Below the pieces are notes generated by a model. That model searched no databases, was not told where the DNA came from, and saw only the letters and a program-made list of their open reading frames with translations. Positions 3,138-33,200 of a stretch of 47,759 bases of DNA are shown here, piece by piece. Within the stretch, counting starts at the first letter, position 1. Each line of letters begins with the position of its first letter. Origin of the DNA: Ettlia oleoabundans. Its lineage: Eukaryota > Chlorophyta > Chlorophyceae > Chlamydomonadales. A program made the translations under genes and the position numbers. The stretch spans positions 1 through 47,759 of the forward strand of contig JAAMXP010001010.1 in NCBI GenBank assembly GCA_019693395.1, in the 5' to 3' direction.

Positions 3138-6100
3138 ATGGTGGCGTCGCACGCGGGCATGACCCGCCCCGTGGTAGGAGCAGCCGTGCCAGTCAAACGG
3201 CGACCGGCATGGTTCAAAATCACGGATAGGAGCATTGGAGTTGTAAACGAGCGGCCGACCGCGGGAGCGCTGGCGTGGAGAGCGGGTCTCGAGCATCTGA
3301 AGGCGATCCAGAACCACTCCGCGCCTGCCAGCGCTTCCACAACTAATGGCAAGAGCACTGCATCCGTGCGGCGCAACAGCATGGATTCACACGAGGTGCC
3401 GTACAGGGCTGGAGACTCTACTGCGGCGGTGCTGCACCGTCGACGGCGCCAGCGGTTTGTGCACACCCCAGCTACCTCTCGGACCGAGCAAGGCTCCTTG
3501 GCAGTGCTTCAGCAGCGTCCGCAGCAGCGGCAACCAGACCAGGTGGCACTCCGCCAGCGGCAGCGGCGCCTGACAGCAGAAGAGCAGGCAGCGCTTGCGC
3601 AGGCCGCGGCTGCCGGCGACATCGAAGCTTCAGTGGCCCTAGTGGATGCAAACCGCGCCCTTGTGCACTACTTGGCTGGCAAGTTTGCTGGCCGTGGCCT
3701 GGAACATCAGGTGAGAAAGGGCGCTCCCTGATGCAAGGCCGCTGGTTAGTCTTGCGGGGGTTTTACCTGCCTAGCACGCGCCACCTCCTTCTGCACTTGA
3801 CCCCGCAGCTTAATTGCCCTCCAGCAATATAGCCACTTAACGCCCGGTTCTACCGTTCTTGCCCCGCAGGACCTGGTTGGAGAGGGCCTGCTAGCCTTGG
3901 AGCATGCTACGCAGACATACCAGCCAGGCCGGGCAGCCAGCTTTGGCACTTATGCCGCCGCTGTCATCCGCAACGTGAGTGCAGCTCGCGTATCGCAGTC
4001 AAAGTTGCACTCAGGCAACACAAATAGCAGCCGCAGGACATATTGAGGTGCTAGCCATATATGGCTTCCATGCTATGGCACGACTCTGCGATTTCCAACT
4101 TACGTGCTTATGGCTTGCAGTGATGCACAGCATGCGCCTGCCAGGTACAATGGGGCATTCATGGGACCTCAAAATGAAACTTGGAGTAGCCTGAGGCCAG
4201 GTTTATGTTTTCCTGCCCTGTGGTGCAGGCCATGTCTCGGGCTGTGAAGAGCAAGGCGCGCGCTGTGAGGCTGCCGGAGAACCACTACACAGGTGCGCGG
4301 GCTCAAGCCCCCAGTAATCCAGTTGAGGCCCAAGCTCTCCACTCCTCCGCTCCAAACCCTCAGTTGAAAAAAAAGAAATCATATGCCCTTGGGCGCGGGT
4401 CGAGAAAGCAGCGGAGAATGGCCCTAGGGGCTGCCTCTTGCTGGCTACCAAAACCTTCAGTTGGTCCAGCCACCCGCATGCCTCTGTGGCAATTCTGCAA
4501 CACACTCATCAAATGGTTTCTCCATTTGTACATATGTACAGCGGGCTGCATGCCTTTGTGCCTGTAGCACTGACTGAAAAAACTGGAGCAGCCGTTGTCC
4601 CTGCACAATCTGGCATGCTCCGTGTTCCTTATCCCTCATCCCTCAAACGCAACCCACCCGCTTGCAGACATGGCAGTGGTGAGGCAGGCAATGGGCAGGC
4701 TGGCTCTGGAGCTGGGCAGGGACCCCAGCTGCGCTGAGATTGCCCAGCACTGTGGCTTTTCCATCCGGTGAGTGTGCTGCTGTTGTACTTCCTTTCCACC
4801 TCATGCCCTTGCCAGGGATAGTGCAGCGCCAGCAAGCTGTGTTTGGAGGGTGCATCTCCGCACTACAGAGCGCTGTTGGCGACATGGGCTTGACAACCGA
4901 TTGTGTTGAGGGCTGCCAGCCCCGTGACATTGCCAACAATCACAAGTAACGTTCCTGGCTTGTATTGCCTGCCAAATGCAGGCACACGCTCCACCTGCTG
5001 CGAGCAATGAGCGACGACGACCGCATTATCGTCGGGGAGCAAGCCGATGAGATGCTGGTGGGTGGCTGCCGCGTTTACTAGGAAGGAAACTTCTGTATGA
5101 ACCCAGTGATGCCGCCTTCCCTGGTGCTAGGCCCCCATGCTGACGGCCCCTTGTCCGGCAGCCCTCTCCCGCATAGCAGAGCATGGCCTGATCACGATCC
5201 ACCACTGCGGTGCTGTTGTGCAGGACTCCGAAGCGATAGACGAGGAGGAGGAAAGTGTGGAGGATAGGGAGTGCCGCATCCGAGAGCTGAGAGTTGAGCT
5301 TGAGAGCCATCTTGCACAGTAAGTGGCGGCGGCACCTATTCCAATGTGTTCCATACTATTTCAGCATGGGTTTGCCAATGCCACCTTGCGGCAACCTGGC
5401 CCAGCAAGTGGTGGTTCACAGGCTGTTGATTGTTTCCTTTGGTGCTCATTTCCACAAGAATCCCTTGATGCCAACTCCAGGCACCTTGCACAGGTTGAGG
5501 AGACACTAGCATGCATGATAATATTTGCCATCCCGCTTTGTTGCAGGTTGGAGCCAAAGCAGGCTCTTATTGTGTCGTTGTACCATGGGCTGGCGGATGG
5601 GCAGGAGCACAGCTTCAAGCAGATTGCTAGGCAGCTACAATGCAGTGGTGAGCTCCCATCCTATCAGAGAGGCTGCTGCGCTTGGTCAGAAGCTTGCCAA
5701 GGTTTTGTGCTGGATGCGCACCAGTGCTCATATCTTCGAAGCCCACCAACACCATCGGCCTGCATTCCTGCCAGTGGGCATTGCATGCTGCTCGTTGCAA
5801 GGTAGCCTTTGCAACACTGCTGGGTGCATGGAGCATCGTCGCAATCAAACATAGTTTCGGCTTTGGCATGCCCCCGTGCAGCTGCCTGGGTCGCTGCCCA
5901 GTACAAGCTAGCGGCACACAAACTACGAAAGGTCACTTTTGATAGAGGAGCCGCCATGCCCGATGATTCCCAAGCTCTGGTGGCAGCGATTGCCAGGTGA
6001 GGCCTACTCACAACAACCATAAACAACCACAAAAGCCCAGCCCCTCACATTGTCAGGAGTTGCACAAACCTGCCTCCTTGCACTGCTGGTTACGTTGGAG

Positions 6101-6978
6101 GGTATCTGTGTGCTTTCATCCTCAATGTTGGACATTGCCGCTTTTGTCTGAGAGCCGATGAGCGGTGTGCGAGGTGCAGTAGGTTGAAAGGGCGCCCACC
6201 CCCTGAGTCAAGCACATGACCCACCATCCATGCTTCACCTTGATGCGCTCCCAGCACCCAGCCTCAGCCTGTTTTCTGTGCGTTCTGGGACTAAATAGCG
6301 CTTGACGTGCACGCACCTTAACGCTCCTTCAATGTCTGCAGGCTGGGTGAAGAAGAGCAGCTGGCACTGGCCCTGCGATGGGGCTGGCTTGATGGCAGCA
6401 ACCTCTCATATGCCGAGATTGGAAAGCGCCTGAATGCCAGCAGTGAGTGTGTCGCACCAACAATCCCTTGCCTCCATCGTGCCGTGGTTTGCTGGTGCTT
6501 CTGGTGCTGCTGGCCTTCTCGTGCATCGTGAGCGGATTGCCAGTTGTTGCTGGCAACAGCAACTTGTCTTGCTCTTGTTGATGTCTGATGTCAACTGCTG
6601 GTCCCTTCCCAAACCCCTCCCATCGCAGCAACCTGGGCCAGCAACCTGTGCAAGCGAGCGGAGCTGAGGTTGCGGGGCCTGCTGCCTCCCGCTGTGCCGC
6701 TCACTCGTGCACGCCTGCAGCGGGTGCAGCTGGGCCGGCTGCGGCGGGCCGCTTTGCAACAGCAGCTGTTGCAGCTGCACGGCGGCGGCCGAGATGATGA
6801 GCCTAGCACTGGTGCCGTCACTACTGGTGCCGTCACTACTGGTGCCGTCACTACTGGTGCCGGCCTGGCTGATGCCTTGGAATCTATCGCGCGGCACGAC
6901 ACAGCAGACAATGCACAGCGGGTGCATGGTACTGCCTTTGCGGCAGCACCACCAGGGGTGGTAGGAGCAGGGCTGTGA
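3138..6978 (+). CDS. Plastid-type RNA polymerase sigma-70 factor A with duplicated region 4
   Basis: Ten exons: 3138-3710, 3870-3974, 4229-4292, 4668-4767, 4982-5057, 5224-5318, 5547-5647, 5882-5996, 6342-6442, 6629-6978. They total 1680 nt (559 aa) with intron phases 0,0,1,2,0,2,1,2,1. Region 2 spans roughly residues 160-247 (ANRALVHYLAGKFAGRGLEH, then DLVGEGLLALEHA and RLPENHY). Region 3 is about 248-290 (MGRLALELGRDPSCAEIA), followed by an acidic linker. Two region 4 copies follow: 339-388 (LEPKQALIVSLYHGLADG, then AAWVAAQYKLAAHKLRK) and 411-461 (LGEEEQLALALRWGWLDG, then TWASNLCKRAELRLRG). The family guides a bacterial-type RNA polymerase to promoters; in algae that is the plastid-encoded polymerase, so the product is expected to be imported into the chloroplast. 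ATG 3138 has a good context, but ATG 2931 in the same open frame would add a Ser/Arg-rich, transit-like leader. Odd features are the double region 4 and Ala222-Val223 in place of the melting Trp pair. Confidence 0.88.
5547..5996 (+). other. Region 4 module, copy 1 of sigma A (two-exon cassette)
   Basis: The exon 5547-5647 (101 nt, entered in phase 2, left in phase 1) encodes region 4.1 plus the first helix of the 4.2 helix-turn-helix. The exon 5882-5996 (entered in phase 1, left in phase 2) opens with the second helix, AAWVAAQYKLAAHKLRK. The pattern L-(D/E)-P...L-x-x-G-L-x-D-G is the family signature of region 4.1. The pair is flanked on both sides by phase 2 introns. Confidence 0.8.
6342..6700 (+). 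other. Region 4 module, copy 2 of sigma A
   Basis: The exon 6342-6442 is again 101 nt, entered in phase 2 and left in phase 1. It encodes LGEEEQLALALRWGWLDG and YAEIGKRLNAS. The next exon, from 6629, begins TWASNLCKRAELRLRG, which aligns with the second helix of copy 1. Exon length and phases match copy 1, as expected for a tandem duplication of the exon pair. Confidence 0.8.
6808..6860 (+). repeat. 15-bp in-frame tandem repeat in the sigma A C-terminal tail
   Basis: The unit ACTGGTGCCGTCACT is repeated about three and a half times and encodes consecutive TGAVT pentapeptides in the tail after region 4 copy 2. Its length is a multiple of three, so copy-number change would not break the frame. 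Confidence 0.85.
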
Positions 6979-8076
6979 GCCCGCAGGCCACAGAAAAGAA
7001 TGCCTTCCAGGCGCAATCCACCTTGCGCTTTCTTGGTGAGGTTGTTGAGGCGGGCTGCCTCAGGTGGCTTACCCATCCTGGAGTGTTGCAGGAGCCGAAG
7101 CCTCTGCCGTTGCCCTGGAAACCAGAAACTTCTGCCATATCGTTCGCGTGGCACCTGAGCTTGTATCTCCATTATTATAGGTCCGTGCTTTCCAGTTGTG
7201 TATATTTGATGGTTGTATATACGCCGCACGTGTTTCCCATGTTAACCTCGTCCTCGGAATTTCTTCGGCTTAGTCGGCCTGTTCTGCAGTAACCTGGCTG
7301 GATTAGCGCCCCACCCGAGAGCCAGCCATATTTTATGTATGCCCTCAACTGAGTTCTGCCAGATTTTATGCGATTGTTCAATCACTCTGGTGTTGTCTGT
7401 CTGTATTGGTTGCATCTCGGTGCGCATGGCTCATCAGAGGTGCACCATACAAGTGAACACATGCCCCATTGATTTCAGCAGCAATATCTTCCCGCATAAT
7501 CAGTACATTACATGCAACCTACATTGCGTGCATCGACTTTGCTTCAACATGCATCAACAATCTTGCAATCAATCATGCCACTGCCATCAACAATGACAAA
7601 CACTGTAATCAAAGCAGCCTACCAGTCAGCTGTGGTTGCGGTTGACTTCGGCTAGCAGTATCCAGGAGTGCGTCGGTGGCCTTGACATGGGATGCCTTGA
7701 TTCTAGAGGTGCTAAGGAGGCCAGATTCAAGTGCATCAGCCATTCAGTTGACTTTTGGCGGACGGCTTTTGTGTGGGAGGCACGTGAGGGCCACTCAGAG
7801 CAGCAACACTGGCGCTGCCGGCCCCTGCAGGCGCCCTGGGGCGCCAGGTTGGCGCCACCGCTCAAAAACTATCACACAACCCAAACCTTCCAGGTAGCCA
7901 ACAGATCACTTCTAAAAGGACTGCCTGGTTTCTCGAAACCGCAGCAACTTTTCCTGAGTGGTTAACAAAGTGTCAACGCCCTTGGCACACCTTGGCAGGG
8001 CCGTAGTGGCAGCTCGATAGCCCGTTTATTGCGGCCCTGTGATCGTGCAATAGCGGTCACCTCTTGAAGTTTTGAT
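6979..8076. other. Spacer between the tandem sigma genes
   Basis: This is about 1.1 kb with no convincing gene. It should hold the 3'UTR of sigma A, with a TGTAA at 7604-7608, and the promoter/leader of sigma B. An in-frame TGA at 8065-8067 just upstream of the sigma B ATG closes that frame. Confidence 0.6.
7604..7608 (+). terminator. TGTAA polyadenylation-type signal of sigma A
   Basis: This TGTAA lies about 626 bases after the sigma A stop. It is the clearest chlorophyte-type signal I noticed in the spacer, and it implies a long 3'UTR. The assignment rests on motif and position only. Confidence 0.4.
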
Positions 8077-11000
8077 ATGCGGCCTGCTGTCACCCCTGGC
8101 AGAGGGCGCGCCCGCCTGCCGGAGTTGGAGGTTCCTCGTGTTCAGCCGCAAGCGCGCCCCATCTCGGCCCAGTCGCTGCGCAGCGGCGGTCCATCGGCGG
8201 CGTTTGCCGTGTTGGAGGCGCTGCAAGAACACTGGCGCCAGTCGCAGCAGGTGGCAGCTGCCGCTGGTGCAGCACCGCCAGCACCCGCGTCAGTCGCGGC
8301 ATCCTCATCAGTCGCTACTTTGCGGCACCGGCGGCGACAGCGCCTCATCCGTGCTGGAGCCATAGCGGGCAGGCAACAGCCCAGCACCCAGCAGCTGCCT
8401 CCAGTGGCGGACCAGCCATCACCCCCACTAAAGCGCGGCAGGCCGATGGCGGCAGAGCAGCGACAACTGGCGGCGGCAGCGATGGCTGGCGATGATCGTG
8501 CCGCTGCCATTCTAGTACACGCCAACCGCCCGCTGGTGCAGTACTTAGCTACGCGTTACTTGAACAAGGGTCTCCCGCGGGAGGTGAGTGACTGCTGGCG
8601 GGTGGTACAAACCTTTCCTCCCCAACTCGCAGCTTGCATGCATATTTGACAGGGAAGCTGATGATGCTCAGCCTTTCCAACCCGGCCAACAGTGAATCAT
8701 GAGCGTGCACTGCATGTTACTTGTTCCAACGATATGATATCTGTGTTAACCTCTGAAACCCAGCTCCTAACACCACTCCCAACCAGGTGCCACCACTTCC
8801 CAATCAACATCATGTAAATGCAACTCCCAACCTTATGTGTGAATATGTGGGAACAGCTCAGTCCAGGCCCTCCTCGCCCACCTGCAGGACCTGGTAGCAG
8901 AGGGGATGCTAGCGCTGGAGCGAGCTTCGAGGCGGTACTGCCCGCAGCCCAACCGTCCCGCCAGCTTTGGAACTTTCGCTGCCACCACCATCTGCAACGT
9001 GAGCACTGCAGACAGAGGGCAAGAATTTGCACTGCAGACAGCTGGACATTTGCGCTGTGTGCCACTCGTTTGCCATCTGCAATGTCATGTATGGGAAAGT
9101 GCTTGGTAGCATGTGTAGAGCGCTTGTCCCTCTCGTCATCGACAGACACATTGCTCCCCGCCCTGATCAATTGCATCCACAAACAACCTTAATTCCAGCC
9201 CAAGCATTTGACAGCAAGGTGCATGAGACCGCCTGTGCTCTTCATCCATCCATTCCTCCTTTATTTGTTTGTGAGCAGGCCATGATGCGTGCAATACAGA
9301 CGCAGTCCCGCAACGTGCGCCTACCGGTGCACCACTACCGTGGTAAGTCTCTTAACAGCGCTGCATGCAATGGCTGGCGTTTGCATATTTTTGTTATTGA
9401 CCTGACTTTTACTACATGCGATGTATCCACCAACGCGTCTTTTTGGTCGCCGCGGCTTGCTTAATGCTGCTTTGTCCTGCATTTGCCCAGCACTTGCGCC
9501 TAGAGAAGTCGACTGTATTCCATATCCTGGGACGTGCGCAACCGTTCGCCAGGCCCTTCTCTCCTACAACACTCGCTACGCCCCCCAAGCCCATGCTGCG
9601 TCATGCCTGCTGTGCGCGTTGCGCCTCTTAGCACGTGTCGTGCCTTCCCTGCCCGCAGACATGGCCCGTGTTCGGCAATCCACGCTGGAGCTTGCCACAG
9701 AGCTCATCAGACAGCCGACTTGTGCCGAGGTTGCCGAACGCTGCGGCTTCACCGTCAGGTCAGCACAACACCCAGCCCTTGTTCTGGTGCAGCTCCCTTG
9801 CTGGTCGTCTCGTTTCCCCCACCAGTTTCGCTTGCAAGGCAACGGGAATGTAACAGTAGGTTGTTGCGCTTCCCTGCCATCGCACCTGGCTGCCTGTCGG
9901 CCTGCCTGTAGGTCGACTGACTGGCCGGGGCTCAGCCTTACACACCTCAAAAGGCCACTCCTTCCCTTCATCTCCACAAAGTTTCCTTCCGTTGGTTGTT
10001 GCAAGTTCTCCAAGATTACTGAAAACCTCTGGCTCCCTTCCCATCCCACCGCAGCTACACATTGCACCTGCTGCGAGCCATGGCCAGTCAGCAGGGGGGC
10101 TCGCCGCTGTCGCTAGTGGTGGAGAATGAGGAAGGGATGCCGCTCCCGATGGATGAAGATTATCATCAGGTACATCATGCTCATGCTGACACCGCGCATG
10201 TGCTGAAGTACATGACACCGCAGCAACACTCGCACAACAGTGTTGCTGCGGTTGTATGCAAGCAGCTAGAAACAGGCTCCTTGGCTGTTGGGCTGTATCG
10301 TGTTATCACCCCCCAGTATGAAATATCACCCCCCAGTATGAGATTGGTTTGTTGGCTGTACAGTTGATGTGCGGAGTTAGCAGTGGAGCTTGGAGCATAG
10401 GCCCTGCACCCAAATGCTTCCATCAGCGATTCTTTATTACAGTTTGATTTCATATTTGCTTGCCCCTTGGACGTTCTGCACGCGGTGCCACCATGAGCGC
10501 AGTCTGCCATCAGCCTTGAGGGCTCAGAGGAAGAGGCGCTGGAGGATGTGCACGCCCGCGAGGAGTGGTGCCTGCTGCTGGGGGCACAGTTACGCAGCTG
10601 CCTGACCAGGTGTGTGTGTGTGGGTGTGGGTGTGTGGGTGGGGGGGGTGGGGAAGGGGGGGTGGGGGTGGGGGGGCCCCTGCTCCTGAGCCGGTGATCTG
10701 CATCCGTCACCTCCGCCCACTTCTCATTCTGCAACTCAAAGTTACAATCTCTACCTGCCAGCTCTTATTCCCAGTTTTTGTTACTTACTGATTCCATCAC
10801 TCTCCAAGTATTATTATGCCATCTTGCTTACGCCCCTCAACCTTGTACATGCCATCCATTTTGTTATCTCCTAAGCAGGCTGGACCCTGATGAAGCGCGG
10901 GTGTTTGAGCTGCGGTACGGATTGGACGACGGCAGCGGGCGGCAGCGCATGTACAAGGAGGTGGCGGCGCACTTCAACAGGACCGGTGAGTGTGCTGGGC

Positions 11001-13085
11001 TTGTTTGCGATTGCTGGCAGCAAAACATAAGAGCAACACAAAAAAGAGGGTAAGACATCGTTCGCCTCTGGACGTGCGTTAATGTCAAAAAGTCAGGTTA
11101 CTCCATCTTGCCAGCAGAGGGAGTGCCAATCCCCAGGTAAACTGGAAGGGCCCGTCTCATGCCACAGGCAGCATTGGCCATGGGTCATCAGCATGCAGAT
11201 CCCATCTTTGGATCTTTGTTGATCTCCGCATCACGTCCCTACTCTGTGCTGTGTGTGACTGATTGATTAACTCCGGTGTTGGCCTTCTTCGTGGTGCAGC
11301 CAGCTGGGCTTCCGATAAATGCAGGGCGGCGGAGCGGAAGCTTCGTGCCCTCATGCATGGGGTGAGGGTGCAACAGCCGCAACAAGGGCTTCCTTCACAA
11401 GGTCGCGACAGCGGCGGCCCGAGCAGCAACAGCAGTTGCTTCGGCAGCAGCAGGAGCTGGGGTGTTGGAGCGAGCCTGGGTTTCGCTTCGTCTGAAGGCA
11501 AAGCCAGCAGGGCAGATGCGATGACCCAGCGGGACGCTCCCTTGGACCCCAGCTTGGCCATTGCAGATGCGCTGACAAGGTGTGTTGAGTGTGTGCTTGG
11601 CAGTCGGCAGTTACAAGTCTGACTCTGCTACTGCATCTGCGTCACAAGAATGCCTCTTTTGGTGAAAAGCATGTGGTGAAGGCATCCATCCACCCATGAA
11701 CGTGGAGAGGCTATGGCCTTCCACCCCCCCCCACCACCAAAGGAACCACATGTGCCACTTTTCCTCGCATACCTCTAGTGCTGTGCTACTGCGTGCGACT
11801 GCTCACCTTCGTGCTGTGCCACACGGCTGTTCACACTGCTGTGCCGTCTCCCACTACCTGCCAACCCGCCCTGTCCTGGTGCACCTGTTGTGCTGTGCCA
11901 CACGGCTGTTCACATTGCTGTGCTATCTCTTGTGTGCATCCGCAGCCTGACGCCCTTAGAACATCTGGCTGTGGCGCTTAGGCACGGATGGCTGGATGGG
12001 TCCGGCCACAAGCTGTCTTATAAGGAGATGGGGGCTCGCATGAACAGAAGTCGTGAGTGCATCCTGCATGTGCAGTCAATGTTAGTCCCCGCCCATGCAC
12101 GTGTTCCATGCCAGCTGTCAGCTTGTACCATCAGCCCCGCGGCGCTGTACCTGCTGGCAAATGGGCTGCTGTTTGCAGTGAATCGTTCGGCAGCAGTTTG
12201 CTCCGCTGCCCTTTCCCGCGATGCTGTTTGCAAAGAAAACATGCGAGCAGCCTGTGCTTTCACCTATTTCTGTGGCCTGCGCTGCTGTTTGCAGTAAATG
12301 GCGCGAGCAGCCTATGCTGCACCGCTGAGGCTGTGATGCGGGCACGGCTTATGGCGTTGGGCCACGAGCAACTGGACCTCGCTCAGCTGCACTTCAGCCC
12401 ACGGCAGCGCCAGGCGTGGCACCAGCAGCTGCACCAGCTGCAGCAGCGGCCTTGCAAGGCCAGGCGGGGGACTAGGGACAAACCATCAGGGCGCAGGGCA
12501 GGCAAGCGAGGGAAACCCTGCAGGCCTGCCATCCAACACAAGTGTGGTGCGTCCGCCCCGCGCGGCAAGGAGGGAGGCAGCGGGAAGAGCGGCAGTGGCC
12601 GCGAGCCTGCTGGCGGCAGCAGCAGCAGCAGCGGCGGCGGCGAGGAGGGGGGGCAGGCTGGGCCCGCCCTTTCGGAAAGCGGCGGCCAGGTGGCGCACCT
12701 GCCAGCTCATAGGCAGGCTTCCACCCAACTCAGACCGGCACCTGTGTCCTCCAGCAGCCTGCATCTCCTGCTGAGCAGCTCTGCTCAGCCCCGTGACACG
12801 GTGGATGCAAGCTGCGACACCAGCAGCAGCACTACCACTGCCACCGCCACCCACACCGGCAATTTGAGCAGTAGCAGGCGAAGCTGTAGCAGTGGGGAGC
12901 ATGGGCGCATCTTGCCGCAACTCACTACCAAAACCATGGAAGGTGCTGCTGCCTTTGCCAACAACGCTGTGGTGGCGGCTCCCGACCCTCGGCGCGCCAG
13001 AAGCTTTGCGGAGGCGGTGGCCAGATTGCGGCGGCAGGAACAGAGCTTGCACCTTGCTGGGCGCACTGCAATAGCGGCTCACTAG
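8077..13085 (+). CDS. Plastid-type RNA polymerase sigma-70 factor B with duplicated region 4 (tandem paralogue)
   Basis: Ten exons: 8077-8583, 8888-8998, 9279-9342, 9659-9758, 10055-10169, 10503-10609, 10879-10985, 11300-11579, 11946-12052, 12295-13085. They total 2289 nt (762 aa) with the same phases as sigma A (0,0,1,2,0,2,1,2,1). Exons 3 and 4 have exactly the same lengths as in A (64 and 100 nt). Region 2 covers about residues 120-227 (ANRPLVQYLATRYLNKGLPR, DLVAEGMLALERA, RNVRLPVHHY). Region 3 (STLELATELIRQPTCAEVA) and an acidic linker follow. Region 4 copy 1 (336-386) is near-canonical (LDPDEARVFELRYGLDDG, then SWASDKCRAAERKLR). Copy 2 (465-518) is LTPLEHLAVALRHGWLDG, then NGASSLCCTAEAVMRARL. 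A roughly 240-residue Ser/Gly/His/Arg-rich tail follows. The expected role is plastid promoter recognition, as for sigma A. The start is the first ATG after an in-frame stop; an upstream leader exon cannot be excluded. Thr202-Thr203 replace the melting Trp pair. Confidence 0.87.
10305..10342 (+). repeat. Short direct repeat in sigma B intron 5
   Basis: ATCACCCCCCAGTATGA occurs twice, about 18 bases apart, in tandem. It is intronic and no function is apparent. Confidence 0.7.
10611..10680 (+). repeat. GT- and G-rich simple repeat in sigma B intron 6
   Basis: GTGTGTG grades into TGGGGG-type runs immediately after the donor at 10610. This is intronic low-complexity sequence; the antisense shadow frames here are artefacts. 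Confidence 0.8.
10879..11579 (+). other. Region 4 module, copy 1 of sigma B
   Basis: The exon 10879-10985 (107 nt, phase 2 in, phase 1 out) encodes the near-canonical region 4.1 LDPDEARVFELRYGLDDG. The exon 11300-11579 starts with the 4.2 helix SWASDKCRAAERKLR and continues into a Ser-rich linker that joins the two region 4 copies. Confidence 0.8.
11811..11930 (+). repeat. Imperfect direct repeat in sigma B intron 8
   Basis: The motif GTGCTGTGCCACACGGCTGT is present twice, about 75 bases apart, followed by near-identical TCACA(C/T)TGCTGTGC. It looks like a local intronic duplication. Confidence 0.7.
11946..12390 (+). other. Region 4 module, copy 2 of sigma B
   Basis: The exon 11946-12052 is 107 nt with phase 2 in and phase 1 out, the same size and phases as its copy 1 counterpart. 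The following exon begins NGASSLCCTAEAVMRARL, which aligns with the second helices of the other three modules (shared A-S-x-x-C and A-E spacing). It has Gly where the others have Trp. Confidence 0.75.
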
Positions 13086-17700: not shown

Positions 17701-20311
17701 CGCTTGCTGCCGTGCACCCACCACGCTGTGCTCTGCAAAGAAAGGGTGCTGGAGCAAGCCGAGTAGCTGCAGATTGGGCAGTTCGCGCCGCTGCCGGGGC
17801 GCGCGCAGCCGGGGTGCCGCCGCCTGCTGTTCCTGCTGCTGTTGAGGCTGCGCCACGGGCTGCTGCGCGCCGCCGCCGTCCTGCCGTTGCTCCAGCTGTT
17901 TCTCCTCTGTAAGTGACGGCACTGGCTCCTGAGTGGCAGCCGCCGCTTCACACCGCTGCTCCGCCGCCAGCTGGCGCTGGTAGCGTTGGCGCTGGTGCTG
18001 CAGCTCTGTGAGCCGGTGCTCCAGCCACCGCACGCGCCACTCCACAACCCTCCGCACATGCTTCCACTCCTTGGAATGTGCAGGGCCGCCACCCACAGCT
18101 GCCTCAGATGCTGCTGCCGCTGGCTGTTGTTCCTGCTGCGGGCGCTGCCCTTCTTCTTCTGCTGCACCCTTCTGCTCAGCTTGCGCAGCAGCAGCTGCCG
18201 CACCAGCCGCAGAGGCGCTGCCCCATGGCTGAACCAGCACAGCATTTCTCACATACTCCAGCAGCTGCTGCTCCTGCTCCTGCTGCTGCACTGCTGCCGC
18301 CGCTTGCTGGCCCGAGGCCCCTCCGTCCTCCTCCTCTCCATCCAAGTCAGTCTCCTCATAGCTGCTGTAGCCGGCAGCATCCACATCTGCTTCCACATCT
18401 GCTGATGTGGCGCCAGCCTGGGCATCCTGCTGCAATGCCTCTGAATCAGCCTCAGTGGTGGCTGTGTCTGCTGTCGACTGGGCGCATAGCAGCGCTCCCG
18501 CGTTGGGGGTGGGCCCTGTAGCACCTGCACAGACAATAAACCACGGCGCATTAGCCAAGGATAGTACCTTGGAAGACACGGCTGCACGGGTGAGCAATGC
18601 ATCCGCACAGATTGTATGAGAATAGAGCAGCACTATTGCTCAGGACAGTCCATGCGCAGCACGAAGGCATGAACACACCGCTACGGTAGAGGCTTGACGG
18701 CACTGCTTGGCTATCCGCCGGCGTGTGCTGACCCGAGCCTGGAGCTGCCGACGTGCCACCGGCTGCCACAAGCGCTGCCATGGCCCGCCGCCCCTCCGCT
18801 TCCATTTCTGTCAGAAGCTTCTTTCCAGCACGCAGCATGACAAGTGCCTGCAAGGAGGGACAATGTAGCACAGGTTGAATAGCCGCACATGGGGGAAGGA
18901 AGCCGCAATGCGGCACGCATGCGTGAAATTGCGAACGCACCGTCATAAGTGAGAAGAGAGCGTGCGAAGCAAAGGTGAGACGTCTTACGCCACTCATGTT
19001 TCATATTCACAGCGGAGACGATGAATAAACTTTATAAAACCACCCACATCCACCTGTCCCATCATATTGCTATGTGGCTAACGGCCATCAAACAACAGCG
19101 TAACATGCCCAACAGAAGGGGTACCAGCACGCCCACGAGGCCACACCTGCTTGTGCACTCGGCTGCGCTTCTGGTTGTACTTCATGGCATTGTTGCAAAT
19201 GAGCTCAAAATCACGCACAACCTCCTGCCAGTTCACATACTGCCGCCCACGAATCTTGCTGCGCATGACCTGCAGAGGCAGGCACCGGGGCAGGGCAGAG
19301 CAGCTGAAAAATTGAGCAGGCGGCAGCAAACTCATTAAACGGCAACAATGCACATGGCATGCAGCAGCAAGCTATAGGCTCTGTTCATGCCAAGCCTGCT
19401 TTCTGCCGCAGCAGCTGCGCTTCAGCACATGCTGCACAATGTGGCTGCGTCCAGTCATCAAGTCAAAGAGGCTGGATACACCACTTGCCAGTGGCTGAAA
19501 GTGCCTCTGCTGTTGTGCCAACGCTGTTGTGCCCACGACCACATCGTGCTGGCGAGGCAGACCCCAAACAGCACAATCAACAACTTTTGAAGCAGCTGCC
19601 CACAGCGAGTTGCAGTGGCTCGCCAGCACCCACCTCAAAGCACATGGGCTGCTTGATGATTTTGTAGTAGTTGGGTGCACTACGCTCTTGCACTGGGTGC
19701 CTGAACCAGCCCTCGGTGTCCAGGTTCATGATGCGAGCGAGTATGCCCTCCAAGTCTGACGCTGCTTGCTGACCAGGGCCAGCGGCGGCTGCGGCTTGCG
19801 GCTGCTGCTTTTGCTCCTGTGCGGCCGCGCCTGTTGCTGCCCTGCCAGCTGGCGACGCTGCTGGCAAAGCTGCTGCTTGCTGCGTGGCTGGCGCAGCGGG
19901 AACTGAGGCTTGCTGCCGCGCGCGCTGCTGTGGCTGTTGCGCCGGCCCTGCTGCAGCGGGCGATGCTGACGTCATGGCGACGACGGCAGACTTGGAAGGA
20001 GCTGTCCCGTTTTCCGGGCGCTGCTGCTGCTGCACGCTACCCTCTGGGACTCGCACGGCGGTGGCACCCCCGTTTTGCAAAGACTTGAGGAGCGGTGGCG
20101 GGGCCGTGCCATTCTCGCCTGCCGACAGGCCCGAGGGCTCGTGGGGCGGCATGGCGCTGCTTGCAGTGGGATCCACCCGAGAGAGCTGCTGGCCCGGCTG
20201 CTGCTGCTGGGGACCTACTGTCTGCTGCGGCGCGCCCATTCGTCGGGCTGAGTCCAGAGGCTGCTGGTCGAACTCCGACGCGTTTCCTTTTGTGCCCCCA
20301 TCGTTCACCAT
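14761..20311 (-). CDS. Bromodomain protein with PEHE-like region and C-terminal AT-hook motifs
   Basis: Nine exons, in transcription order: 20311-19634, 19269-19147, 18847-18679, 18524-17392, 17108-16962, 16909-16810, 16475-16398, 16151-16083, 15752-14761. The total is 3489 nt (1162 aa) and all phases agree. A bromodomain spans about residues 185-285: EGILARIMNLDTEGWFRHPV, YYKIIKQPMCFEVM, then VRDFELICNNAMKYNQKRSR with the acetyl-lysine-binding Asn in MKYN. A long Gln/Ala/Glu-rich middle follows, with a coiled-coil-like EWRVRWLEHRLTELQHQRQR. Residues 702-832 (EYDMGELITPLGAPKFVER, IDTPRVRPVSPSELKKR, SSDEDTSDEAFLSRHQKMEA) resemble the PEHE region of MSL1/KANSL1-type acetyltransferase scaffolds. 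The C-terminus is Ala-rich and ends GRKRGRPARNAGRPKR, two AT-hook-like cores. The likely role is a nuclear chromatin reader or scaffold for histone acetylation. The bromodomain is certain; the PEHE assignment is by pattern recognition and should be tested. Confidence 0.88.
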
Positions 20312-20650
20312 AGGCTGCGGGGAGGCATCGAGCGAGGATCAGGCCGCTGCCCCACAGTGTTCGGCAAAGGACAGAACCTCTACGAAGCTGGGGGCCGTGG
20401 TGTAGTGTAGGCGAAGCCGGGATATGGAGGCGGAAAAGCGAGAAACTGGTTTAGGGGACTCGCAACACGGGCCAAAATTGCCCTCAGCTAGGCGGGGACG
20501 AGCGGAGTGGCGAGAGAACCAGCTAATGCGAGGGTCGTTTATGCACCTTAATTCCGACTTTGTTGTCGACCCTGGCCCGTTATTGCACAGCCCAGGCGCT
20601 TCCTCAGACTCTATCTCGCCTACAGCCCCAGCCTCGGACCATTCCTTGCC
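20312..20650. promoter_or_regulatory. Bidirectional promoter region between the bromodomain and VKOR genes
   Basis: This 339-bp gap separates two divergent start codons, so both leaders and both core promoters must lie here or overlap the first exons. I see no TATA box or clear operator-like motif. Frames that read through it lack support. The call is inferred from gene orientation. Confidence 0.5.
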
Positions 20651-22136
20651 ATGTTGCTCTCGGTCGCCGCTCAGCGGCTTAGCGTCCCCCCGGGCCTTCA
20701 TACTCGCGCTACAGCGCACCGTCGACCCCCCAGCAGGCCCGTCAGGCTGCCAGTCTGCGCAGCCGCCGGCGGGGAGGACGGCGAGGCGGGCCCGTCGGGG
20801 CGGGACGCTGACAGCCTTGCAGCCAACCTGCCGCCTTTGAAGCAGGCAAGAGCCAGCCAATTAGTCTCAGCTCGCATCAGTAGTGTGACCACCTAGCTAG
20901 GGCAGCATAACGCAGACTCCAGCATGGCAGCACCCAGCTAAGCGCACCCACTGTTGCCGGACATCAACACCACTGTCGCAGCACCATGCAACCAGCACCC
21001 ACTTTCCTTACATGCCATGCAGGTGCCGTACCGCGCCATCGCAGCCCTGGCAGCCGCTGGGTTTGCAGACACAGCCTACCTCACTGCGGTCAAACTGCTG
21101 GACCTCACTCCCGCCTGCCAACTGGGTGCAAGCGGCGGTGGCGGGTGTGCCGACATCTTGAGCAGTGAGTACGCCACGCTCTTCGGCGTGCTGCCGCTGT
21201 CGGTAGCGGGCATGCTGGCCTATGGTGGCATGGTGGCATTGGCGTTGGCGGGCTGGCGGCACGTGGCGGCGGCAGCAGCAGCAGCAGCAGCGGCGGCAGA
21301 TGGCAGCAGCACGGGAGTCGCCGAGCCCACAGCGGCACAGATGGACGCGGAGGCCCCCTTCCGCTCGGGCGTGCTGGCAGGCGGTCTGGTCCTCGCCAGC
21401 TGCAGTTCTTTCCTCCTCTACCTGCTGTTCACGAAGTTTGAGGGAGCTTCGTGCCCGTACTGCCTCACCTCCGCGGCTCTCAGCTTTGGCATCGCGGGCC
21501 TTGCAGCCAGCGGCATGCGTGGCCGCGACCTTGGCGAAGCAGCGGCACCCGGCGCTGGCGTGGTGGCCACCACGCTGCTGCTGCTTTCGCTAGGGCTGGG
21601 CAACCCTAACTTCAGCTTCGCCTCCGGCGGCTACGATCTGGATTATAACCTGCCGGCTGTCACCACACAGAGTCCGCCACAGGCAGTGTCTCTGGCTCAG
21701 CGACTGCGGGACAGCGGCGCTAAGATGTACGGCGCATTCTGGTGCAGCCACTGCTACGACCAGAAGCAGGCGTTTGGGGCGGAGGCTATGGATGCATTCC
21801 CCTACGTCGAGTGCTACCCAGAAGGACTGCACAAGGTGGGTGCTCACTAAACCGAAACACCAGAAGCGTGCAGCGGCGTCGCAGCCCCAACCATCCAGCA
21901 TGCAGCAGGCGTTGCTCCTCACTGTATGCCTAGCATTGGCTGCTTCCCTGCAGGACACAAAAATGGCGGAGGCCTGCCAGGCAGCGCCAGGCGGGCTGCA
22001 GGGCTTCCCCACCTGGGTCATTGGCGGCGAGCAGCTGGTGGGGGAGCAGACTTTCGAGCAGCTGGAAGCAGCTCTGGCAAAAGCTCAGGCGGCCAGCAAC
22101 ACGGCAGGAGCGGCCTTGGAAGCAGTGGTCAACTAG
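20651..22136 (+). CDS. LTO1: VKOR-thioredoxin fusion, thylakoid lumen thiol oxidase (LTO1-type)
   Basis: Three exons: 20651-20884, 21023-21835 and 21954-22136 (1230 nt, 409 aa). Exon 1 encodes a Ser/Arg/Ala-rich N-terminus, MLLSVAAQRLSVPPGLHTRA, that looks like a plastid transit peptide. Exon 2 carries the VKOR four-helix membrane domain: loop cysteines C110 and C120 (GGGGCADILSSEYA), a second loop extended by an 11-residue Ala run, and the redox pair C222-P-Y-C225. A thioredoxin-like domain follows with W-C319-S-H-C322 and the cis-Pro-type segment GLQGFPTWVIGG in exon 3. Such fusions form disulfides in lumenal proteins, including photosystem II subunits. All expected cysteines are present, so the protein should be active. 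The exon 1 donor (GTGACC, 20885) is weak but is the best of the few in-phase options. The gene is divergent from the bromodomain gene; no functional link is evident. Confidence 0.88.
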
Positions 22137-25700: not shown

Positions 25701-28700
25701 TCCACCATTGAGGATCGCTTTCCAACTGTTAGGCCTCTTCCCAGCCAGCCCCTCACCTGGCGCCCCTCCCAAGCTCCGCAAGTTCCCCATTGGGCCTCCG
25801 CAGGTATTGCACCGCAGAGAAGGGGATCAACCACTCCTGCAGGCTGGGCGGCAGGGCCGCTGGTGCCAGCCACGTTGCCCCCTGTGGGACGTCGCCGCTG
25901 CCAACGCCTACATCTGTGGTGCGCCCGTTGGCATCCAAGCTGCCGCTGTCGCTGGCGCCGGTCCGTGCCGTGGAGGCTGAGGCTGCACCGCTGCCACTGG
26001 GAGGCAGGCAGGCCACCTCCTCCTCTAATGCACGGTGCTGCATGAGCTCCGCCAACTCCCCAGAGGGCCATCCCTCTTGCCCCGAATGGCTGCTGCCCTG
26101 TAGCGGCAAGCCAGCTGCCGCCCTTGCACCCCCCTGGTGCTGCGGCGCTACACCATCGGATGCTGAGGCGGCTGCCGCTGCGGCCATCCGCGTCTGCCGT
26201 AGCGCCACAAAAGGGCTGGCAACTGCTGGCCGGGCATTTATTGTTGCAGCACGGCCCACCATTCTATTTACCACCACGCCCCTCACGCCCACAGCTTGGT
26301 TGCGAGGCTGCAGGCCCGGGCTTCCAGGCGGGCCTTCTGCTGTGCCGCTTTCGGAAGCCGAGGGGACCGGGCTGCTCCCGAGGGACACAAGGGCCAGTAG
26401 CTGCTGTGACACATGAGGCCCATTCATTCCTCCCGGGTCTGAGGGCGGCTGCACTGAGATCGGCAGCTGCACCACAGTCTGCTGCGCTGCGCCGTCAGAT
26501 TTGTGGTGCATCTCCCGGCCCGCCGCAGCAGCTGCGCTGCGCTTGTTCCCGCGGTGCCGTGCCAGCGCCCAGCCAGCCCCCAAAACACCAACGAAGGCAA
26601 CCGTGCAGCCAACAGAAATTCCGACAATGGCGCCATCCGACAGATCCGAACCGCCGTCGCTGCTGCCGGCGGCTACTAAGCTGCCAGCCCCTGCCTGTTG
26701 CAAATAAACTGCACTGGTGGGGTTGTAAACCATCCGCGCCAAATTGGCTCCGTCTGCCTTGCGGAATATTCCCCTTGGCTGATCGTCACCCAGCATCCCA
26801 GGTTTGTACACCACGGCTGCACAGGTCGGATCTGCCAGGCAGCGCTCGCCCAGCTGTGGTAGAGGCATGGCAATCACACACTCATGCAGGTCTGGCCTGC
26901 ACGAACAGGAGGGAGGGGTTTGGGTTGCGCCAACAACAGCGGGGGACATATGTGACGACCAGAGACCAAGCTAGTTGTGTTCAGTAGAAGAGCAAGCCTT
27001 TAAAGCGACCTGGTGAAAACCTGGTGAAAACCAATGCAGCAACAAGATTATGGCGCAGGAAGGTATTCAGCATCGGCTTAGAAGTAAGAAGGGATTGATA
27101 TGTGTAGGCTGGGTCTGAACCCACTCCTGCAGGACTCACTGAAGTGTGCCGTTGCAGATGTGGCCTGGCTGGCCCCACAGGCCGCGTGCTGGGTAGAGCG
27201 TAAAGCCTTCAAGGGGAGGTGAAGTCACAGCAATTGGGGCGCCAGAAGTGAAGCCCCCAGAATCTGGACCCTTTGCGACGAGGAAGGGGGGCCCGCTGGT
27301 GGCGGGATCCACAAGCGCTTGAAACCGCAGCTCGCCTGCATTGAAGAAGGGCATAAAGGCATTTCAGGTGCTGACTTTTCAACAAGCAACGAGTTCGTGC
27401 AGCAGTTCGAAACTGACATGAAGCAATTCTCTCCCACTGGGCAGAAGCAAGCAACTGGGCTGCCAACCTGGGATAATCATGACCACAGCTGAAAAGCATG
27501 CTGGTAGCTATATACATTGAAGGACAAGCTGCAGATATCCCTGTGCAAGTTCACAGCTGCCTATTTGCAACAGGAGGTTGCTAAATGCACCGCAGTAGCC
27601 CCTCACATTGCTGATACTCCATCGTCACAGCAGTAGAGAAATCTTGAAAACTGCAGGTGGGCAACGGAAGCAAAGGTGGTTCAGTCTTAAGCTACCACTA
27701 TTCAATCTGTTGCTTTATAAGATCAGCGCTCCATGCTGCAACCCTCGCCACCCCATCCCCCAACCACCTACCCACACAAAATTCAAGTACTGCAATGCAT
27801 GCCTGCAGCCACCCCAACCCCACCTGCAGCCGGATGTGCGGTTGCAGTAGTTGAAGACGTTGCAAGAAGGACTGCGCCTTCTGCACTCTCTGCAGCAGTC
27901 AACTGCGCTAGGCACATCATCCAGGGTCTCCAGCACTTCGCCAGCCATCAGCGCATCACCCACCGCCACGATGCATCCCAGCCAGCTGTTGCTGCCGCCA
28001 GGCACCCCCGTGCCATCAGCGGCTGTCGGCTGCAGCGCAGAGGCATTCGGCGGCACCCCTGGCTGCACCTGCCCAGCAGTTGGGGACACTTCCCCAGCCG
28101 CCGGCAGAATTAGGGTAGCTTCTCCGTTGTGAAGGAAGGAGCCGGCCTGCAAGCGCTATATGCTGGGTTAAGCGGCAACTGCAGGGGTCATGGCATGGCA
28201 TCAAGCTGCACTGGCAGCACACCAGCCCAAATCGAAGCGCTGGTGCTAATGGTCCAAGCTTGCTGCCAAACAGCCGCGCTGCTGCCATTTCCAGGTGACG
28301 TTTGCCACATGAAAGCGGCGTAGCACCCACCTGGGCCCCCTCCACTCGTTCAAGTAAGTACACCGTGGGAGCCATGTAGGAGTTGGATGGTCCCGAGACA
28401 ATGGATTTGAGAACAGCAATCTCCTTGCCGCATCCATCCATACCACTGGAGTAAACCATGATACTGTTGCAGAGGGAGGCCATGGTGGTGCTGCACACCG
28501 CTGCGGCATGGATCACTGAGGAGAAGGCGCACCACCCCTGAATCAAGGTCTCGTTGCAGTGGAAGTCGCCGCCATCAATTCCTTGCGCCATGCGGGGCAC
28601 GTACTCGGGCAGGAAAGATGGCAGGCGGGCACGAATGGGGAAGCCTGCGTGCCACCCAAACGTGGGTGGTAAACGTGGGTGCTGAAGCTGGGCTGCCACA

Positions 28701-30274: not shown

Positions 30275-33200
30275 ATGGCCAAGATTACAACGTCCACCAT
30301 CGGGTTCCCCCGCATCGGTGAGTGCAGGAGTGCTAGAGCAGGGAGTGGGTGGTCTGCATCCGGCCGCCTGCTGAGGTCTGCAGGCCCACGATCGAAAGCA
30401 CGGTGCTGGAGGCTTTTGATGGTGCTGATGGCACTTGACTGATGATGCGGCGAGCCTCACCCACGCTCGCCGGCAAGCTGCTGCAGGCCCCAACCGGGAG
30501 ATGAAGAAGGCCCTTGAAGCCTACTGGGCTGGCTCCATCGACGGCCAGGCGCTGCTGCAGACCGCCGCTGACGTCGAGGCCAAGGCCTGGGACAGCCAGG
30601 CCGCCGCCGGCATTCAGCTGATTGGACTGGACGGCACCCTGTATGACCAAGTGCTGGATGTGACCTTCCAGCTGGGTTTCATCCCCGAGCGCTTCCAGGT
30701 GAGTGTTGCCATTTTGAATGGCGGCTCGCTGAGCCGCTACCGCAGTTGAGCAACCGTGCGGGCAGCCTGCAGCGAGGCTAAAACATTTCGCCAGTTGCGA
30801 GCCACCCGGCCAGCTTATCCCCATCTCTCCATTGCCTGGCCGCGCTTACCTGCTCCTTGCTGCCATTTTTCGCCCGCCTGCCCCCAACTGCAGCCTCTCC
30901 GTGAGCGCTCCGTCGCTGCTGCTGCCTCCACCGGGCTTGCAGCAGGTCTGCCCATTTACTTTGCCATGGCACGTGGTGCTGAGGGTGCGCCCGCCTGTGA
31001 CATGAGCAAGTACATGGACTCAAACTACCACTTCATTGTTCCCGAGCTGGGTGCTGAGTCGGGTGAGCGCTTGCTCTGCCTTTGCCCCCGCCACACGAGC
31101 GCGCCGAGCTTGCCGAGCCGCAGTTGCCCCACACCCAGCAGGAGTAGCCAGCGCACCGGTAGCAGTAGGACAGCCAATGTCAGTGCCTTCTTTCGTCACC
31201 CAGCACCACACTGATGCGACCCTTGCCAGCCGCGATGCGCATGCAATGCACCTGCACCCCGCCCAGTTGCTTGACTGAGGCGCATTGTAGCAGTTTTTGC
31301 TGCCTGCTCCTGCTTTCGCCTCTGCTCCTCGCTGACCCACACTGCCCTCTGCCCTGACCTTGTGCCGCAGAGCCGAGCCCCGACTGGTCGCCCCTGATTG
31401 ACCGTGTCAAGCGTGGCCAGGCTGTCGTGGGCCGCGAGCGTGCTGTGCCCATTGTCGTGGGTGAGCCGCTACTGCCCTGCCCTGCGTACACTGCGCTTCC
31501 ACCTGCCTGCGTTGTTGGGGGGGATCATTATGGTGTCCCTCACTTGCCTCTGCCCATTTCTTGCGCACTAGCCAGCCCACACCGAAGCATTGGTGGCCGA
31601 ACCGCCCTTACACACACCCTCACACGCACCACCAGCCCACCCCACACGCACTCAAGGATGGATGAAACAACCAAAGTCCCTTGCCTGTACTCGCTGTGTG
31701 CTGCTTTTGCCTTTCCCCACTGCTCTGCCTCCTTCACCTTCAGGCCCCATCACCCTGCTGGGTCTGGCCCGCGGCTCCTTTGACCGCTCCGCCCTGCTGT
31801 CCCGCCTGGTGCCTGCATACGCCCAGCTGCTTCAGCAGCTGGGTGCCCTCGGTGTGCCTGAGGTCCAGGTAGGGTGGAAATCCTGCTACCGGGCATAGGC
31901 TGGTGGTCTTTGGGTTACCGGTGATGTGTCAGGGTTTAGTTGCTGGTGATGTGGTGGGCTTCAGACTGACGTCGCCGTGGTGGGCTTTGGGTCACCGGTC
32001 TTGTGGTGGGTGTGGGCTACGGTGTGACTGGGTCTGCCTTGCACCCTTTACACGCTTGCACTGCATGCACGCACAAGCCTAGCAAATTGGTGTTTGGCTG
32101 ACTGGAAGGCGCGGGTGACCTTTCACTCGATACGATGGTTCGACTCCATCAACACCTACTGCTCAGTGCTTGCTTGCTGTGTTGCTGCTGTTGCGACTGT
32201 TGGGCTGGCATGGCGGGTGGTGCTTGCCGTGAGACGCTTTGAGGGTGTCTGGGGTATGGGTTTCCACCATTTCTGTAAGTTGTTATGGTTAATTGCGTAC
32301 ACATTGTCCTCGAGTTCAGTAAATGTAAATGAAAGAATGCGCATAGGTGCATGCGTGGGTGTTGTGTATGGCTGTGTGTGTGTGTGCATGCTCATGTGGT
32401 AGTGTGGGTAGATGCATGTGGGGGGGTGCGTGCGTGGGTAAATGTGTGTATATGGGTGACTGGGCATCAATGCACACGCATGGTTGATTGGGTGCATGTG
32501 CATGGGGTGGGTGTGCATTGTGTGGCATTGGTTGTGGTGTGGAGGAGTGCGTGTGGGTCGATGCATGCGTGATGCAACCGTCGTGGATGGGTGGATGCAT
32601 GCGAACATTTAAGAGGCGTGCATGCGTGGTTGTGCGTGCCTTTGGTTGTCTGATTGGGCGCCTTCGTGTGGGTGGATGGGATTTTCCTGTGTAGTGTTGA
32701 CATGTATGTGCGTGCATGCGGAGTGTGACTACAGGAATGATCTCATCCACAGTTTTGGGTATTGCAACATTGGCCTTGCTCTCTGATTGATCGACTGGCT
32801 TTCACAGCGTGTTCTGTTTCAGCTTAACAAGTAGTCTGTTCGAAGGTTTCTGGGTGTTATATGGGACGCCTGCTACGGAGCCTTCTGCGCCCGTTGTGCA
32901 GTTCCACGAGCCGGTGCTGGCTCTGACTGCTTCTGAGGGGCTGGCTGGGGATTGCGCTGCCTGCTATGGCCAGTTGGCTGCCACCGGCGTTGCCATCAAC
33001 CTGGTCGTCCCATACGACGATGTGCCAGGCAGGTCATGCTGTTGTTGCTATATGCTCCGTATGGTGCTGGGTAACCTGTAGTGCTTTTGAGGTAGTGGTC
33101 CAGCTTCCCAAGTTGCACAGCACCGACGGCGTGGATGGGGTGTCTCAGTGCAAGCTTCAGTGCAGACGGCCCTCATGGGGTGGAAGCCTCAGTGCACAGT

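What the first reader, a model, noticed from the sequence alone, without database searches (positions are those of the whole stretch)
3138..13085. Two sigma factors that each carry two copies of region 4
Seen: in both tandem sigma genes the usual order of regions 2, 3 and 4 is followed by a second complete region 4 (4.1 signature LALALRWGWLDG / LAVALRHGWLDG plus its own second helix). Known: bacterial and plant plastid sigma-70 factors have a single C-terminal region 4 that binds the -35 element and the polymerase beta flap. Inference: a double region 4 could contact two DNA sites, bind one polymerase flap and one regulator, or span two polymerases. I do not recall this architecture being described for plastid sigma factors, and finding it in both paralogues argues against an annotation artefact.
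Basis: partly seen in the sequence, partly recalled or inferred. Interest (0 to 1): 0.88.

Follow-up and report, generated by a model that had tools for sequence, protein, structure and literature searches.

The report
Sigma factors with doubled region 4
In a green alga, two neighbouring genes for sigma factors, likely of the chloroplast, each encode a second region 4 whose exons match those of the first in reading phase; it probably arose by exon duplication, and the extra copy is predicted to grip the RNA polymerase rather than read the usual promoter site.

Summary
Two tandem ten-exon sigma-70 genes (g1 3138-6978, g2 8077-13085) each encode regions 2, 3 and 4 and then a second region 4 (r4b). 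Pfam gives two region-4 hits in g1 (30.8 and 31.0 bits; cut-off 24.1); in g2 the second is weaker (17.3 bits, E 0.0035). r4b looks like a copy of r4a: exons 7 and 9 match in length (101/101 nt in g1, 107/107 in g2) and phase, at intron positions not shared by two other sigma genes of this genome. A Chlorella variabilis protein groups with g2, so the doubling is probably older than that split. r4b's first exon is twice as conserved between the genes as r4a's (62% against 29%). r4b keeps polymerase-binding residues (4 and 3 of 6) but almost none of those used only to read the -35 box (1 of 14 each). I infer that r4b docks on the polymerase flap and r4a is freed. That both copies sit in one protein is predicted, not shown; a splicing switch is a live rival. 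My searches found no description of this architecture.

The parts
3138..6978 (+). Gene g1: sigma-70 factor, 10 exons (3138-3710, 3870-3974, 4229-4292, 4668-4767, 4982-5057, 5224-5318, 5547-5647, 5882-5996, 6342-6442, 6629-6978), 559 aa; start codon not certain
   Evidence: Gene model; Pfam regions 2 and 4 over cut-off
5547..5996 (+). g1 r4a: exons 7 (101 nt) and 8 (115 nt), first region 4
   Evidence: PF04545 30.8 bits for the piece alone; phases 2 and 1
6342..6699 (+). g1 r4b: exon 9 (6342-6442, 101 nt) and the start of exon 10 (from 6629), second region 4
   Evidence: PF04545 31.0 bits for the piece alone; phases 2 and 1
8077..13085 (+). Gene g2: sigma-70 factor, 10 exons (8077-8583, 8888-8998, 9279-9342, 9659-9758, 10055-10169, 10503-10609, 10879-10985, 11300-11579, 11946-12052, 12295-13085), 762 aa; start codon not certain
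   Evidence: Gene model; Pfam regions 2 and 4 over cut-off for the whole protein
10879..11579 (+). g2 r4a: exons 7 (107 nt) and 8 (280 nt, with a 76-residue low-complexity linker after the domain)
   Evidence: PF04545 25.3 bits for the piece alone; phases 2 and 1; linker
11946..12360 (+). g2 r4b: exon 9 (11946-12052, 107 nt) and the start of exon 10 (from 12295), second region 4 with a drifted last helix
   Evidence: PF04545 17.3 bits for the piece alone, under the cut-off; 21 of 34 residues of exon 9 identical to g1 exon 9

Best explanation
Each of the two genes encodes regions 2, 3 and 4 of a sigma factor followed by a second region 4 that likely arose by duplication of a two-exon module before the two genes separated, and the second copy (r4b) is predicted to be the one that docks on the flap of the chloroplast RNA polymerase. 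Shown: the exon lengths and phases, the profile hits, the stronger conservation of r4b's first exon, and the loss of the -35-reading residues in all four copies. Inferred: both copies sit in series in one protein; r4b seats on the single flap tip through its kept polymerase-binding residues; r4a, at the usual spacing after region 3 but freed from docking (most clearly in g1), would make a second contact with DNA or another protein; promoters would then be chosen without the usual -35 box. Confidence by step: architecture 0.9, exon-duplication origin 0.9, both copies in one protein 0.75, docking role of r4b 0.4.
For: Exons 7 and 9 have equal lengths within each gene (101/101, 107/107) and phases 2 to 1 in all four cases. 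The intron inside region 4 lies 7 nt further on, and in another phase, than in the C56 and C1053 sigma genes, and neither of those has an intron where exons 7 and 9 begin. Exon 9 is 62% identical between the genes, exon 7 29%. Core-binding positions kept: g1 r4b 4/6, g2 r4b 3/6, against g1 r4a 1/6, g2 r4a 3/6 and canonical C56 4/6; positions for the -35 box only: 1/14, 1/14, 0/14, 3/14 and 12/14 (positions from PMC4943231). One flap-tip helix in the plastid rpoB. The four copies stand apart from the other region 4 rows in two trees (81/72, 82/76). The Chlorella variabilis protein groups with g2 (98/93).
Against: r4a has the canonical spacing: the cyanobacterial RpoD model TIGR02997 aligns through residue 387 of g1. 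In g2 both copies keep three of six core positions, and both r4b copies have W at I565. g2 r4b is under the Pfam cut-off. A narrow canonical HMM does not lift r4b of the spliced proteins above shuffles. The support for the region-4 group is moderate, and one of the two trees does not resolve the four copies. No RNA, protein or structure data.
Confidence: 0.42

Rival explanations
1. Splicing switch: the two region-4 cassettes are alternatives, so that each gene makes sigma factors with either r4a or r4b and seldom both.
For: Skipping exons 7+8 (r4b only) or 8+9 (hybrid) keeps the frame in both genes, and keeping intron 8 ends the protein 1 (g1) or 14 (g2) residues after exon 8.
Against: A module duplication leaves this frame symmetry by itself. 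Exon 8 has a donor site and a phase that fit exon 9 in both genes, and it carries no stop of its own.
Confidence: 0.2
2. r4a holds the flap as usual and r4b, on a tether, grips DNA upstream or a regulator.
For: r4a has the normal spacing after region 3. The linkers to r4b are 22 and 76 residues, and the most basic 40-residue windows start within r4b in g1 (+9) and behind it in g2 (+13, from residue 550).
Against: g1 r4a keeps 1 of 6 core-binding positions while r4b keeps 4; r4b keeps 1 of 14 positions used only for the -35 box.
Confidence: 0.28
3. One copy is a decaying leftover: the duplication has no function of its own.
For: g2 r4b is under the Pfam cut-off; exon 7 and exon 8 are 29% and 25% identical between the genes, and exon 10 is 23%.
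Against: Exon 9 is second only to exon 2 in identity between the genes (62% against 66%), so r4b at least is constrained; open frames and phases are kept in both genes.
Confidence: 0.06
4. Gene-model artefact: exons 9-10 belong to a separate gene or are not expressed.
For: No transcript data; the models are hand-built from splice sites and frames.
Against: Phases join exon 8 to exon 9 in both genes; of the 8 exons held out from training (7-10 of both genes), 7 score best in their true frame.
Confidence: 0.04

Closest known systems
Sigma-70 primary factors (RpoD/SigA; cyanobacterial type TIGR02997)
   Same: Order of regions 2, 3 and 4, with r4a at the usual spacing
   Different: A second region 4 follows; scores are far under the equivalog cut-offs (g1 126.6 bits against 384.5 for TIGR02997); the tryptophan pair of region 2.3 is lost
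Plastid sigma factors of plants and green algae (SIG1-SIG6; the single sigma of Chlamydomonas, PMC3933795 passage)
   Same: Sigma-70 genes outside the plastid genome, with introns, in a cell whose plastid contig has rpoB
   Different: At least four sigma genes here rather than the one reported for Chlamydomonas; two with a doubled region 4. That plant sigma factors have one region 4 is recalled, not tested here
Chlorella variabilis CHLNCDRAFT_141990 (P0007)
   Same: Orthologue of g2 by tree (98/93) and 59% identity
   Different: The deposited model ends inside exon 7 and has no Pfam region 4; whether the genome holds r4b was not testable
The C56 and C1053 sigma genes of the same genome
   Same: Sigma-70 region 4 split by an intron in the helix-turn-helix
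   Different: One region 4 each in what could be read (C56 runs off its contig); intron phase 0, 7 nt upstream of that in g1 and g2; C56 keeps 12 of 14 of the -35-only positions

Membership tests
Sigma-70 family | Region 2 (PF04542) over the curated cut-off | tested here: met
   56.8 bits (g1) and 47.8 bits (g2), cut-off 24
Sigma-70 family | Region 4 (PF04545) over the curated cut-off | tested here: met
   53.6 and 35.1 bits for the whole proteins, cut-off 24.1
Sigma-70 family | Region 3 (PF04539) | tested here: inconclusive
   20.9 and 16.4 bits, under the 25.3 cut-off; partial matches in the right place
Sigma-70 family | A single C-terminal region 4 (usual layout, recalled) | tested here: not met
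   Two stretches in each protein; three of four copies over the cut-off when cut out alone
Primary (group 1) sigma, RpoD/SigA | NCBIfam cut-off of the RpoD models | tested here: not met
   g1 101.4 bits to TIGR02393 (cut-off 354) and 126.6 to TIGR02997 (384.5); g2, cut at residue 544, 90.5 and 101
Primary (group 1) sigma, RpoD/SigA | Residues that read the -35 box (R584, E585, R588, Q589) in region 4 | tested here: not met
   Absent from all four copies; present in C56
Primary (group 1) sigma, RpoD/SigA | Tryptophan pair of region 2.3 used in melting | tested here: not met
   AV in g1, TT in g2 (alignments)
Plastid sigma factors | Gene outside the plastid genome, in a cell with a plastid-encoded polymerase | tested here: met
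   Intron-bearing genes on contig C345; rpoB and rbcL on the 116,312-base contig C1228
Plastid sigma factors | Import into the plastid and activity with its polymerase | not testable with these tools
   No targeting predictor or experiment at hand; start codons uncertain

The most novel reading that the evidence does not exclude
A two-headed chloroplast sigma factor: an old exon-pair duplication, kept in two sister genes, split the jobs of region 4, so that one head holds the polymerase flap, the other is free to hold a second DNA or protein target, and the -35 box was given up.
Probability: 0.3. Interest if true: 0.82.

Novelty: new variant of a known kind. Interest (0 to 1): 0.62.

Why it matters
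Region 4 both grips the polymerase and reads the -35 box within one small domain, which makes the two jobs hard to separate. A natural sigma factor with two copies, one still carrying the grip residues and neither carrying the usual readers, would be a ready test case for how far the two jobs can be parted and how chloroplast promoters could do without a -35 box. It would also show exon duplication reshaping a bacterial-type transcription factor, which is open to it only because the gene sits among introns in a nucleus.

Tried and rejected
TcdR of Clostridioides difficile turned up in a search for 'two sigma4 domains'; the passages show that the phrase compares the domains of two proteins, so it is not a double region 4. 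A protein search with the r4b part of g1 scored none of 486 candidates at E 10 or better. The first protein search gave 6 proteins, all with bacterial-type sigma domains; the third, with the g1/g2 alignment, gave 18, one of them named as Chlorella. In these two searches only the 7995 and 7997 candidates sharing most words were scored, so other algal relatives may have been missed. A narrow canonical HMM was too strict to judge r4b in the spliced proteins. In the region-4 tree without the Chlorella piece the four copies are not resolved among themselves. Pfam searches of the genome for regions 4, 2 and 3 miss split exons, those of g1 and g2 among them, so 'at least four sigma genes' is a lower bound.

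Full report
What is there. The assembly that holds the window (32,896,482 bases in 1230 contigs) also has a 116,312-base contig with rbcL and rpoB, so the organism is photosynthetic; the kinship of g2 to a Chlorella protein (below) makes it a green alga. From 3138 to 13085 lie two sigma-70 genes in the same orientation. I built ten-exon models by hand from reading frames and splice sites: g1 codes for 559 and g2 for 762 residues. 18 of 18 introns are GT-AG, and each exon of g1 has its counterpart in g2 with the same phase. The proteins are 36% identical over 535 aligned columns (E 1.3e-71). A codon score trained on exons 1-6 of both genes puts 7 of the 8 held-out exons (7-10 of both genes) first in their true frame among six; the eighth, g2 exon 8 with its low-complexity linker, is second by 0.01.

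The second region 4. Pfam finds region 2 in both proteins, region 3 under its cut-off, and two stretches of region 4 in each. Cut out alone, the copies score 30.8 (g1 r4a), 31.0 (g1 r4b), 25.3 (g2 r4a) and 17.3 bits (g2 r4b) against a cut-off of 24.1. So three of four copies pass, and the fourth is recognised only over profile positions 2-35 of 50. Solved sigma structures match g1 through region 2 and as far as r4a; among the 60 rows shown of 77, no best stretch goes beyond residue 392.

Where it came from. Exons 7 and 9 are 101 nt each in g1 and 107 nt each in g2, and all four enter in phase 2 and leave in phase 1. Two other sigma genes of this genome give the contrast. C56 has a canonical region 4 (VTRERIRQIEAKAIRKLR) and runs off its contig end; C1053 is a divergent sigma whose frame stops soon after its region 4. 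In both, the intron in the helix-turn-helix is phase 0 and lies 7 nt upstream of the position shared by the four tandem copies, and the exon runs straight through the point where exons 7 and 9 begin. The recognition helices also share a pattern that C56 and C1053 lack: W-A-S-x-x-C-x-x-A-E in g1 r4b and g2 r4a, A-S-x-x-C-x-x-A-E in g2 r4b, and only the W in g1 r4a. In two trees of region 4 the tandem copies stand apart from the other rows with moderate support (81/72, and 82/76 with the Chlorella piece among them); the two r4b copies pair in the second tree (87/91) and are unresolved in the first. I conclude that a two-exon module was duplicated in an ancestor of both genes.

How old. A Chlorella variabilis protein (P0007) is 59% identical to g2 over 271 columns and 46% to g1 over 215, and groups with g2 (98/93). 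The g1/g2 split, and with it probably the doubled region 4, is thus older than the split from Chlorella, unless r4b passed between the genes later. The Chlorella model stops inside exon 7 and shows no Pfam region 4. This predicts a missed second region 4 there; I could not read that genome.

Which copy matters. Between g1 and g2, exon 9 is 62% identical (21/34), on a par with exon 2 (66%) and exon 4 (58%) of regions 2 and 3, while exon 7 is 29% (10/34; Fisher two-sided p 0.014, a test chosen after seeing the numbers). I scored each copy at the E. coli positions that PMC4943231 lists for core binding (6) and for the -35 box (16, of which 2 are also core positions; passage). Core binding: g1 r4a 1/6, g1 r4b 4/6, g2 r4a 3/6, g2 r4b 3/6, C56 4/6, C1053 3/6. 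Positions for the -35 box only: 0/14, 1/14, 3/14, 1/14, 12/14 and 5/14. In g1 at least, r4b keeps the grip as well as the canonical sigma of the same cell and has lost the reading. The flap-tip helix of the plastid rpoB is seen once (EKLYNVIM, in the place of EKLLRAIF in E. coli, which I recall).

Mechanism. I take r4b to be the docking copy, and r4a, most clearly in g1, to be released for another contact. Points against: r4a has the normal spacing (TIGR02997 aligns through residue 387 of g1); in g2 both copies keep three of six positions; both r4b copies carry W at I565. A DNA-gripping r4b is the main functional rival: the most basic 40-residue windows start inside r4b in g1 (+9; starts 447-452 among the top six) and behind it in g2 (+13, starts 550-552), and the linkers to r4b are 22 and 76 residues. 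These proteins have also lost the tryptophan pair of region 2.3 (AV and TT); multiple alanine substitutions there, in various combinations with neighbouring aromatics, impair open-complex formation in E. coli (PMC2613000, passage). They may therefore be specialised or regulatory sigma factors, with C56 as the housekeeping one (inference).

Splicing. Skipping exons 7+8 or 8+9 keeps the frame in both genes, skipping 7, 8 or 9 alone breaks it, and keeping intron 8 ends the protein after 1 (g1) or 14 (g2) more residues. Since a module duplication leaves this symmetry anyway, it neither shows nor excludes a switch. Only RNA can.

Novelty. Searches of the paper library for doubled region 4 and for algal sigma factors showed no description. 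They were judged from the listings, except that passages were read in PMC10223161 and PMC3933795. The library lacks most subscription journals. The proteins are sigma-70 family members by regions 2 and 4 but depart from the usual layout, so I file them as a new variant of a known kind.

Noticed in passing
L006 about 3161-5763 (G000:C1053), minus strand: A further divergent sigma gene with one region 4; its region 2.3 also lacks the tryptophan pair (YAMAAIQN).
   Followed up: partly
L029 (G000:C56:14000-15344), minus strand: C-terminal exons of a canonical sigma factor, cut by the contig end; its region 2 was not found elsewhere in the assembly by Pfam or by a bacterial sigma query.
   Followed up: partly
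12162-12183 and 12278-12299: A 22-nt repeat (91% alike) holding the acceptor of g2 exon 10; the upstream copy offers a second acceptor that would give a short, different C-terminus ending at 12297 (the reading of the alternative is mine).
   Followed up: partly
6808-6867: 15-nt tandem repeats inside g1 exon 10, coding for a Thr-Gly-Ala-Val-Thr repeat in the tail behind r4b.
   Followed up: no
L028 1293-5693 (G000:C1228), minus strand: Plastid rpoB as one 1466-residue open frame, with a long Lys/Phe-rich stretch in its middle that looks like an insertion; not compared with other rpoB genes.
   Followed up: no
20942-21847 (+), 19580-20338 (-), 30429-30746 (+), 27718-28155 (-): Other Pfam matches in the window among 10 open frames tried: VKOR, a bromodomain, the N-terminal domain of cobalamin-independent methionine synthase, a PAN domain.
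   Followed up: no
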